A DNA stretch of 64,000 bases, taken from assembly GCF_000381085.1 (NCBI RefSeq), contig NZ_KB905903.1, positions 1 through 64,000 on the forward strand. Direction: 5' to 3'. Below are positions 3,759 to 6,527 of this stretch, one piece after another. Every line of letters begins with the position of its first letter. The stretch's first letter is position 1. The stretch comes from Thiomicrorhabdus arctica DSM 13458. GTDB taxonomy: Bacteria; Pseudomonadota; Gammaproteobacteria; Thiomicrospirales; Thiomicrospiraceae. The notes beneath the pieces are model-generated. The model saw only the letters and a program-made list of their open reading frames with translations. It searched no databases and had not been told where the DNA came from. The translations under genes were made by a program, and so were the position numbers.

Positions 3759-4373
3759 TTAGCTACATCTAGCATACTGTCTTCTATACATTCGACTACG
3801 GTTGGCCACTTTCTTAGCGACCTTCTGTAGCCAGGGCTTTTTAAGGTAGGTTCTACGTGCATAGCCGCCTTGACCCTCATGGTAGGCGAGGTAGAGCTTA
3901 TAAGTGTCTTTACGTGAAATTCTAAGACGCTTGTGTGATTGATAGTTATACCAACCCATAAAATCTAAGGCATCTTCAATATCTGAACGACTTTGGCTCC
4001 AACGATTTGTGGCCTTCTTATAGTCATCCCAAGTGCCATCTTGAGCTTGAGAGTAACCATAAGCACTTGAGCTTCTGAATAAGGGAATAAACCCTAGTGC
4101 ATAAGGTCTATCCGGTTGGGCATCAGGTTTAAAACGTGATTCCTGATGAACCATTGCCATCAAAACATACGGTGGTGTGCCCCAACGTGTTTGAGACAGT
4201 TGCGCGGCTTCTCGCCACTCTGGATCATGTTGGAAAATGGAACAAATATTATCATAAGTCTCCTTAGGAGGAGGTGTGGTACTACAGCCGCTGAGTACGA
4301 CGAGTGTGGCCAGTAGAGCTAAGCCAAGAATGTTCTGCTTTAGGGTCTTAAATGTATGAACGTGGCGTTTCAT
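3759..4373 (-). CDS. lytic transglycosylase-like lipoprotein (SLT fold)
   Basis: The 204-residue protein begins with a lipoprotein signal ending in the lipobox LSGC at about residue 30, so it is probably lipid-anchored at the envelope. The body resembles the SLT lysozyme-like fold: MAMVHQESRFKP carries the expected catalytic Glu, followed by SSAYGYSQAQDGTWDDY and YHEGQGGYARR. Such enzymes cleave the MurNAc-GlcNAc bond with formation of 1,6-anhydro-MurNAc. Its ATG overlaps the last base of the upstream DUF2914 gene stop (TAATG), so the two are translationally coupled and may act together. The exact substrate is unknown. The paralogue class (MltC/EmtA-like or a distinct family) cannot be settled by eye. 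Confidence 0.8.
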   Translation of the reverse strand: MKRHVHTFKTLKQNILGLALLATLVVLSGCSTTPPPKETYDNICSIFQHDPEWREAAQLSQTRWGTPPYVLMAMVHQESRFKPDAQPDRPYALGFIPLFRSSSAYGYSQAQDGTWDDYKKATNRWSQSRSDIEDALDFMGWYNYQSHKRLRISRKDTYKLYLAYHEGQGGYARRTYLKKPWLQKVAKKVANRSRMYRRQYARCS

Positions 4374-5233
4374 TATTGGGTTCCATAGATAAATGTTTTT
4401 CGAAATATTACGTCTTGGTTTGCATCAAGCACTTCAATATGCCAAGTGCCTTGCCAAGCGCTGCTCATTTTTTTTGAGGACCATGTTCGATAATGATCAC
4501 TTTGAATGTTCAGCGGGATTGTCGCTAGAATTTGGTTATTAAATAGCCAGCGATGACTCAGCGTTTGATTATTAGCATGCTCTATTTGAGTATAAAAATG
4601 GAGTTCACGGATGTATTTTGGAACTGTTTGATTAAATTCGGTACCGGGTTGTTGCTCAATAATTTTACTGGTTAAAATGGCCTTAGTAATCTTAATGTCG
4701 CTATCGATAATGGGTTGCAAAGGCACGTTTTGTTCGGCTTTCTGTTGCGCATTTTTTGCTTTATAAATCTCTAAATCACTTCTTTGCGCAGAGGATAGTA
4801 GTCCTAAATCTAGCGTGTGTTTTTCAGCGATTTCTGACGGTGTCTTACCATTCACTAATGATGGCGTTTTCTGAGATGGCGTTGTTTTAGAGAAATGGTG
4901 GGTTTGTTCTGGAACACCAGCAATCAGACGTGCTTGTTCAGCCTGCTCCTCTTTTATATTATGCAGCATGAGTAGAGTCGTACTAATGCCGCCTATGAGC
5001 ATCATGATTCCCCATGCAAATCGGCCTCGCCAATCCGATTGACTCCCATCTTCAACACTTAAAGTAATATCTTCTTCTGCCTGTTCCCACCCCATTTGAA
5101 AGTAATTACGCATCTCCATATCTCTACGAATGAGACTCGGCATGCTGCTAGAAGGTTTTCCTTCAAGCGCCATTCTGTATCCTTTCTTAAAGGCATGCTG
5201 AAAGTGAATGTTCTCGGTATCAGGTATCTGCAT
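4373..5233 (-). CDS. membrane protein with RMF-like N-terminus and DUF2914 C-terminus
   Basis: The 286-residue protein has three parts. Residues about 11-55 (FKKGYRMALEGKPSSSMPSL … YFQMGWEQAEED) resemble ribosome modulation factor, whose pattern is RGYQAGIAGRS…CPY…GGWREAMAD. Residues about 71-91 form one membrane helix. Residues about 215-284 (ELHFYTQI…HRWLFNNQ…GTWHIEVLDANQ…FIYGTQ) match the DUF2914 pattern, a small beta domain presumably outside the cytoplasmic membrane. Function is unknown. It lies between ftsY (40 bases upstream) and a coupled lytic transglycosylase gene, which suggests envelope work. The RMF resemblance is by eye only and could reflect a wider helical family. Confidence 0.72.
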   Translation of the reverse strand: MQIPDTENIHFQHAFKKGYRMALEGKPSSSMPSLIRRDMEMRNYFQMGWEQAEEDITLSVEDGSQSDWRGRFAWGIMMLIGGISTTLLMLHNIKEEQAEQARLIAGVPEQTHHFSKTTPSQKTPSLVNGKTPSEIAEKHTLDLGLLSSAQRSDLEIYKAKNAQQKAEQNVPLQPIIDSDIKITKAILTSKIIEQQPGTEFNQTVPKYIRELHFYTQIEHANNQTLSHRWLFNNQILATIPLNIQSDHYRTWSSKKMSSAWQGTWHIEVLDANQDVIFRKTFIYGTQ

Positions 5234-5273: not shown

Positions 5274-6527
5274 CTAACTGTTTTGATCAAACAGTGCTTC
5301 CGTAAATGCTAAACTTTCAAATGGTCGCAAATCATCAATGGATTCGCCGACGCCAATAAAACGAATGGGAATTTGAGTTTGTTCCGCTAAGGCAAATACA
5401 ATTCCGCCTTTAGCCGTGCCATCCAATTTGGTGAGGGTAATGCCTGAAACATCAACTGATTCTTTGAACTGTTGTGCTTGATTAAGGGCATTTTGCCCTG
5501 TTCCAGCATCAATCACGAGCATGACTTCATGTGGAGCGGTCGTATCGATTTTCGCCAAGACCCGTTTGACCTTTTTCAGCTCTTCCATCAAGTTGGATTG
5601 AGTGTGTAAACGCCCAGCCGTGTCGGCAATCAAGACATCAATTTTTTTGGCTTTGGCTGATTGAATCGCATCAAATAAAACGGCCGCAGAATCGGCTCCC
5701 GTTTTCTGAGCGATGACCGGTACGTTATTACGTTCTCCCCAGGTTTGCAATTGCTCTACGGCTGCTGCTCGGAAAGTATCTCCGGCCGCGAGCATGACCG
5801 ATTTTCCTTCTTCTTGATATTTCTTTGCAAGCTTACCAATGGTGGTGGTTTTTCCAACACCATTAATGCCGACCATTAAAATAACAAAAGGTCCCTCTTG
5901 TTTGGCTAAGTGATTATCAACATCAAGTGGTACTGCAATGGGGGCTAAAATGTCCTGTAATTGCTTTTTTAACGCGGTGATTAACGCTTGAGGATCCTTA
6001 AGTTCTTGACGCGTAACTTGTCCTGTTAAATGACTAATAATGCGGTCAGTGGCATCAATGCCCACATCGGCCGTTAACAAAATCATTTCCAACTCTTCAA
6101 GCAGGTCCCCATCAATTTCTTTACGGCCTAAAACTAGAGTCGCCAAGCTGTCTGTGAAATTTTGACGCGTTTTGCTTAAGCCTTTTTTTAAGCGGGTAAA
6201 GAAATTTTGTTTTTGAGACGCCGTTTCATGGTCGGCAATTTCTTGGGTTTCCGTTGGTAAAATAGACGCTTTTGCGACGACAGCATCTTCATTAAAATGC
6301 TCAATATTGTTTAATAGGGTTGTCTCAGCTTGCAACTCAGTGATTTGAGGTGCATTATTCATTACACTCTTTTCAGTCACCGTCTCTCTATTCTCAATGG
6401 ACTGAATTTTGGGTGTTTTTTCAGTTGTTTCTGGGCACTCAACTTCAGCGGCTAACTCTAAAGGCTGAGCCTGCTCGATAGGCTGTTCTGCAGAGTGTTT
6501 TTTCTTACGACGTAAAAAACTAAACAT
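5274..6527 (-). CDS. ftsY: signal recognition particle receptor FtsY
   Basis: FtsY receives SRP-ribosome-nascent-chain complexes at the inner membrane and hands them to SecYEG. The 417-residue protein has a basic start (FLRRKKKHS), an acidic low-conservation A region to about residue 110, then the NG GTPase: GINGVGKTTTIGKLA (P loop), DTFRAAAVEQL, DTAGRLHTQSNLMEEL and TKLDGTAKGG. An AGGAA ribosome site precedes the ATG. In E. coli and Pseudomonas ftsY is followed by ftsE-ftsX-rpoH; here a DUF2914 membrane protein follows instead. It diverges from an M16 protease pair, a neighbourhood also seen in Pseudomonas. Confidence 0.96.
   Translation of the reverse strand: MFSFLRRKKKHSAEQPIEQAQPLELAAEVECPETTEKTPKIQSIENRETVTEKSVMNNAPQITELQAETTLLNNIEHFNEDAVVAKASILPTETQEIADHETASQKQNFFTRLKKGLSKTRQNFTDSLATLVLGRKEIDGDLLEELEMILLTADVGIDATDRIISHLTGQVTRQELKDPQALITALKKQLQDILAPIAVPLDVDNHLAKQEGPFVILMVGINGVGKTTTIGKLAKKYQEEGKSVMLAAGDTFRAAAVEQLQTWGERNNVPVIAQKTGADSAAVLFDAIQSAKAKKIDVLIADTAGRLHTQSNLMEELKKVKRVLAKIDTTAPHEVMLVIDAGTGQNALNQAQQFKESVDVSGITLTKLDGTAKGGIVFALAEQTQIPIRFIGVGESIDDLRPFESLAFTEALFDQNS

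What the first reader, a model, noticed from the sequence alone, without database searches (positions are those of the whole stretch)
4373..5233. RMF-like domain fused to a membrane helix and DUF2914
Residues about 11-55 follow the ribosome modulation factor pattern (GYxxAxxG, a P/L-rich turn, GWxxAxxD). Residues 71-91 are a membrane helix and the C-terminus is DUF2914. RMF dimerises ribosomes in stationary phase, so a membrane-tethered RMF-like domain coupled to an extracytoplasmic sensor-like domain would be a new arrangement. It sits between ftsY, the SRP receptor, and a translationally coupled lytic transglycosylase. This is the best candidate for an undescribed protein system in the window: a possible link between the ribosome or SecYEG side and the cell wall.
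Basis: partly seen in the sequence, partly recalled or inferred. Interest (0 to 1): 0.62.

Follow-up and report, generated by a model that had tools for sequence, protein, structure and literature searches.

The report
Membrane-anchored RMF-fold protein with DUF2914
This bacterium carries a membrane protein whose inner end looks like a worn-down version of the small factor that puts ribosomes to sleep, and whose outer end is a widespread envelope domain of unknown role; the combination is real, but the parts needed to pair ribosomes are mostly missing.

Summary
On the minus strand, 4373-5233 encodes a 286-aa protein: an RMF-like hairpin (residues about 9-56), one membrane helix (about 72-94), a variable linker, and an Ig-like DUF2914 domain (176-286). 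The single sequence gives only a sub-threshold RMF match. A profile of 47 orthologues matches real RMFs (hhalign P about 7e-9; score 42 against at most 21 for 200 column shuffles), and the predicted fold has three RMF chains as its top PDB matches. The architecture is kept in about 53 of 63 genomes of the family; one genome of another gammaproteobacterial family has it too. The family has no canonical RMF. The function claim is weaker: R3, K5, R11, C29, W40 and R45, each needed for 100S ribosomes in E. coli, are replaced, and the domain is near neutral instead of +4 to +6. The ftsY link is also weak: relatives without the gene still have ftsY directly followed by the transglycosylase. Best reading: a divergent RMF-family head on a membrane anchor, probably docking a cytoplasmic partner (possibly ribosomes) but not a dimerising factor. 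New variant of a known kind; function untested.

The parts
4373..5233 (-). RMF-like / TM / DUF2914 protein, 286 aa
   Evidence: ORF; orthologues in 51-53 of 63 genomes of the family
5066..5209 (-). RMF-like helical hairpin, residues 9-56, predicted cytoplasmic
4952..5020 (-). membrane helix, residues about 72-94, preceded by conserved R69 and R71 (positive-inside, N-in)
   Evidence: sequence; conservation; helix 68-105 in the model
4730..4951 (-). variable linker (residues about 95-147) and helix 148-168
   Evidence: low pLDDT in 106-140 and low conservation
4376..4708 (-). DUF2914 domain with its flanking strands, residues 176-286, Ig-like beta sandwich, predicted periplasmic
   Evidence: Pfam E=1.5e-16; seven strands in the model; Ig-like PDB matches
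3759..4373 (-). SLT_4 lytic transglycosylase, lipoprotein, start overlaps the stop (TAATG)
   Evidence: Pfam SLT_4 E=5.8e-77; sequence
5274..6527 (-). ftsY, SRP receptor, 40 bases upstream
   Evidence: Pfam SRP54 and SRP54_N

Best explanation
A single-pass inner-membrane protein (N-terminus in, C-terminus out). Its cytoplasmic head is a divergent member of the RMF fold family, joined through one membrane helix and a flexible linker to a periplasmic Ig-like DUF2914 domain. Shown by computation: the fold relationship, the architecture, its conservation and its gene order. Inferred: the topology. Inferred mechanism: the head no longer dimerises ribosomes; it is a docking hairpin that brings a cytoplasmic partner to the membrane while DUF2914 binds something in the envelope. 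The single most likely partner is the ribosome or 30S subunit, held at the membrane as E. coli YqjD holds stationary-phase ribosomes, but I put that at only about 35 to 40 percent.
For: RMF relationship by profile, reciprocal genome search and fold. The core residues of the hairpin (A12, G16, Y17, G23, P30, G43, W44 in E. coli numbering) are kept in 40 to 47 of 47 orthologues. The cytoplasmic head is the most conserved folded domain (mean pairwise identity 51% against 39% for DUF2914; linker hardly conserved). A new set of conserved basic residues exists: K16 47/47, R20 46/47, K26 43/47, R36 and R42 as R/K in 46-47/47. No canonical RMF in 63 genomes of the family, and the window's genome has a short HPF and no long HPF. 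DUF2914 proteins elsewhere mostly carry signal peptides or membrane helices, which fits C-out. Precedent for membrane-held ribosomes: YqjD (PMC8778775).
Against: R3, K5, R11, C29, W40 and R45 are replaced; in E. coli each alone is needed for 100S formation, and C29 and W40 also for ribosome binding (PMC8126665). Net charge of residues 1-56 is -2 to +3 against +4 to +6 in RMFs. No ribosome-binding evidence of any kind was or could be obtained. Ten of 63 genomes show no homologue, so it seems dispensable.
Confidence: 0.6

Rival explanations
1. A true membrane-tethered hibernation factor: the head binds the 30S platform near the anti-Shine-Dalgarno region as RMF does and, with short HPF, makes or stores inactive ribosomes at the inner membrane, with DUF2914 sensing the envelope.
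For: RMF homology; no canonical RMF in the family, short HPF only in the window's genome; equivalents of R24 and R37 (K26, R42) stay basic.
Against: Loss of R3, K5, R11, C29, W40 and R45; near-neutral charge; relatives without the gene also have no RMF.
Confidence: 0.15
2. The RMF-fold head is only a small cytoplasmic cap or protein-docking hairpin with no ribosome contact; the protein works in the envelope with the coupled transglycosylase or another cell-wall factor.
For: TAATG overlap with slt in the window, and overlapping or abutting frames in most relatives; loss of rRNA-contact residues; other RMF-like hairpins occur in unrelated small proteins.
Against: The head is the most conserved domain, which a mere cap would not need; ftsY-slt adjacency exists without this gene and two genomes keep this gene without a detectable SLT_4 next to it.
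Confidence: 0.3
3. The RMF resemblance is chance or convergence of a short helical hairpin.
For: Single-sequence scores are below both curated cut-offs; PF04957 also gives E about 3e-4 hits inside FeoB-like proteins by chance.
Against: Profile score twice the best of 200 shuffles; RMF is the top hit in three searches; conserved core residues coincide in order and spacing.
Confidence: 0.07

Closest known systems
Ribosome modulation factor (RMF, PF04957; PDB 2jrm, 4v8g, 6h4n)
   Same: Two-helix hairpin with A12, G16, Y17, G23, P30, G43, W44 in register.
   Different: No N-terminal KRQKRD arm; C29, W40 and R45 replaced; near-neutral charge; fused to a membrane helix and DUF2914; below curated cut-offs.
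DUF2914 proteins (PF11141)
   Same: The C-terminal domain is a clear member.
   Different: Of about 70 other gammaproteobacterial DUF2914 frames examined, none outside this family carried the RMF-like head; the homologue in G105 was found separately.
YqjD / ElaB / YgaM (E. coli membrane proteins that bind stationary-phase ribosomes; PMC8778775)
   Same: Idea of a cytoplasmic part that could hold ribosomes at the inner membrane.
   Different: C-terminal anchor, no periplasmic domain; no sequence relationship was tested.
Short RMF-like proteins with a C-terminal hydrophobic helix (L050, L053, L060, L052)
   Same: RMF-like hairpin joined to a probable membrane helix.
   Different: Anchor at the C-terminus, 126-173 aa, no DUF2914, NPY/NPF loop.

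Membership tests
RMF (PF04957) | Sequence score over the curated cut-off | tested here: not met
   13.4 of 27.9 bits in the window protein; 0 of 63 genomes of the family over the cut-off
RMF (PF04957) | Profile-level homology to canonical RMF | tested here: met
   hhalign P=7.4e-9, above all 200 shuffles; best outside hit of the profile in 369 genomes is an RMF
RMF (PF04957) | Two-helix hairpin fold | tested here: met
   AlphaFold2 pLDDT 88; top three PDB matches are RMF chains; VIA-align Z 6.8-7.7, tied with some unrelated helical rows
RMF (PF04957) | Core residues A12, G16, G23, P30, G43, W44 | tested here: met
   kept in 40-47 of 47 orthologues
RMF (PF04957) | Invariant R3, K5, R11, C29, W40, R45 needed for 100S formation (PMC8126665) | tested here: not met
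   C29, W40 and R45 positions hold M, F and E in most orthologues; the basic N-terminal arm is replaced by MxLPxTDN
RMF (PF04957) | Ribosome binding and 100S formation | not testable with these tools
   needs sucrose gradients or cryo-EM
DUF2914 (PF11141) | Pfam score over cut-off | tested here: met
   60.3 bits against 23.6
YqjD-like ribosome anchors | Ribosome binding by the cytoplasmic part | not testable with these tools
   no binding data
[quoted passage not shown]
   helix at 72-94 followed by about 190 residues with DUF2914

The most novel reading that the evidence does not exclude
A whole bacterial family has replaced soluble RMF by a membrane-anchored RMF relative whose periplasmic Ig-like domain reports on the envelope, so that ribosomes are parked or released at the inner membrane in response to the state of the envelope.
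Probability: 0.15. Interest if true: 0.75.

Novelty: new variant of a known kind. Interest (0 to 1): 0.45.

Why it matters
It shows the RMF fold used as a module in a transmembrane protein, in a lineage that lacks ordinary RMF. If the head still touches ribosomes, it would be a direct physical link between ribosome state and the envelope; if not, it shows that RMF-like sequence alone should not be annotated as ribosome hibernation.

Tried and rejected
Chance resemblance: tested by shuffles, reversal and reciprocal search and disfavoured. A conserved ftsY partnership: about 40 loci have ftsY directly upstream, but the block M16-ftsY-slt-fabB-fabA is conserved as a whole and ftsY-slt are adjacent without the gene in G002, G004, G054, G055, G056 and G060. 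Phage origin: no match in phage records or PHROGs. Functional hints from the DUF2914 fold: matches are generic Ig-like and carbohydrate-associated beta sandwiches, plus UNC119/RhoGDI by Foldseek, none specific. FeoB-like and other long-frame PF04957 hits in the class search were short chance matches or reading-frame artefacts. Literature on RMF-like fusions or DUF2914: nothing relevant found. The family search around G105 gave no further genomes, as only one is held. The promoter and terminator scan of the operon was uninformative.

Full report
What is there. The open reading frame at 4373-5233 lies on the minus strand and encodes 286 residues. It begins 40 bases after ftsY (5274-6527) and its stop overlaps the start of an SLT_4 transglycosylase lipoprotein (3759-4373) as TAATG. 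Pfam finds DUF2914 at 223-281 (E=1.5e-16) and, far below its cut-off, RMF at 12-55 (E=0.085, 13.4 of 27.9 bits). NCBIfam gives RMF at E=0.0039, also below its cut-off. The single sequence therefore does not prove an RMF relationship.

Test of the RMF relationship. Orthologues were collected from the window's family: 51 of 63 genomes by single sequence, 53 of 63 by profile. The nearest named relative is a Thiomicrorhabdus MAG (73% identity in the best segment). Forty-seven N-termini (A2) were compared with eleven canonical RMFs (A3). hhalign gives probability 95.8 and P=7.4e-9. In a local repeat the score is 42.2, against a mean of 10 and a maximum of 20.9 for 200 column shuffles; the reversed alignment gives P=0.68. 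Scanned one by one, 29 of 47 members match PF04957 at E<=1 and no other family matches more than two. The A2 profile, which contains no canonical RMF, has Vibrio RMF (2jrm) as its best hit among all PDB sequences, at a modest E=0.011, with the other two RMF sequences in the top five. In 369 gammaproteobacterial genomes its best hit beyond the orthologues is a canonical RMF (E=6.6e-6; the place is the one that gave L033), with two more RMFs at 0.025-0.029. AlphaFold2 predicts helices 9-24 and 39-63 with a short helix 33-37 between (mean pLDDT 88). Foldseek ranks three RMF chains first among 350,542 (prob 0.97-0.99; E about 0.4 because the domain is so small). VIA-align gives Z 6.8-7.7 to RMF, tied with some unrelated helical chains, so the fold match alone is not decisive. 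Sequence and fold together make a real, remote RMF relationship the best conclusion.

What has been kept and lost. In E. coli RMF thirteen residues are invariant, and single alanine changes at the eleven tested besides M1 and A12 greatly reduce 100S ribosomes; G16A, C29A, W40A and W44A also suppress ribosome binding (PMC8126665). In the orthologues A12, G16, G23, P30, G43 and W44 are kept in 40-47 of 47. C29 is mostly M, W40 mostly F, R45 mostly E, and the basic KRQKRD arm with R3 and K5 is replaced by a motif like MxLPxTDN; no conserved R stands at the R11 position. Net charge over residues 1-56 is -2 to +3, against +4 to +6 for RMF 1-51. These are the features expected of a hairpin that keeps its fold but not the 100S-forming contacts. 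New conserved basic residues are present: K16, R20, K26, R36, R42. Some form of RNA, lipid or protein contact is therefore likely, and ribosome contact is not excluded.

The rest of the protein. Conserved R69 and R71 lie just before the membrane helix, so the head is predicted to be cytoplasmic. The linker is variable and poorly predicted. The C-terminal domain is a seven-stranded Ig-like sandwich. DUF2914 was found in 97 of 370 gammaproteobacterial genomes. Of the roughly seventy frames read, most have a signal peptide or an N-terminal membrane helix, some follow a polytopic membrane part, and none outside this family had the RMF-like head. The head is more conserved than DUF2914 (mean pairwise identity 0.51 against 0.39), so it is under strong constraint.

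Genome context. The family has no canonical RMF: 0 of 63 genomes over the cut-off, with E. coli as positive control. The window's genome has one short HPF and no long HPF. That leaves this head as the only RMF-like sequence found in the window's genome. Gene order M16-M16-ftsY-[this gene]-slt / fabB-fabA is conserved in about 40 loci. In six relatives without a detectable homologue, ftsY is followed directly by slt, so the gene was inserted into, or lost from, an existing ftsY-slt pair. Two relatives have a strongly divergent version at the same place. Two others have the gene but no SLT_4 recognised beside it (L071, L088). Neither ftsY nor slt is therefore an obligate partner.

A second occurrence. 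G105, in another family of the class, has a 302-aa protein with the same order: RMF-like head (PF04957 E=0.0028), membrane helix, linker, DUF2914 (E=1e-9). It keeps W40, G43, W44 and R45 (sequence EWELGWRAG), and is not next to ftsY, which there precedes ftsE/ftsX-like genes. The fusion is thus not a peculiarity of one locus, but it is rare. Whether the two are one old fusion or two events was not resolved.

Mechanism. Shown by computation: fold relationship, architecture, conservation, gene order. Inferred: N-in topology, periplasmic DUF2914, docking function. [quoted passage not shown] A true 100S-forming role is unlikely. A purely envelope role with the head as a protein-docking hairpin is a serious rival.

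Verdict. A real and apparently undescribed domain combination; a new variant of the RMF kind, not a proven hibernation factor.

Noticed in passing
L050:1441-1824, L053:524-901, L060:1297-1677(-), L052:1309-1827(-): Uncharacterised short gammaproteobacterial proteins with an RMF-like hairpin (PF04957 E 6e-5 to 7e-4, NPY/NPF loop) and, it seems, a C-terminal hydrophobic helix: possible tail-anchored RMF relatives.
   Followed up: partly
L117, L174, L184, L198, L201 (N-terminal parts of DUF2914 proteins): Several membrane-anchored DUF2914 proteins begin with a short basic tail of the type LKIKIKLG before the membrane helix; its meaning is unknown.
   Followed up: no
L103, L110, L115, L122, L127, L176, L206: In some gammaproteobacteria DUF2914 is the tail of what looks like a multi-helix membrane protein, another arrangement.
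   Followed up: no
L145:1876-2658 and L146:2816-3613(-): Two relatives have a strongly diverged version at the same site, with a degenerate hairpin and a DUF2914 region barely recognisable.
   Followed up: partly
L002:4995-5857: In the nearest named MAG the gene is split in two overlapping frames, either an assembly error or a frameshift.
   Followed up: no
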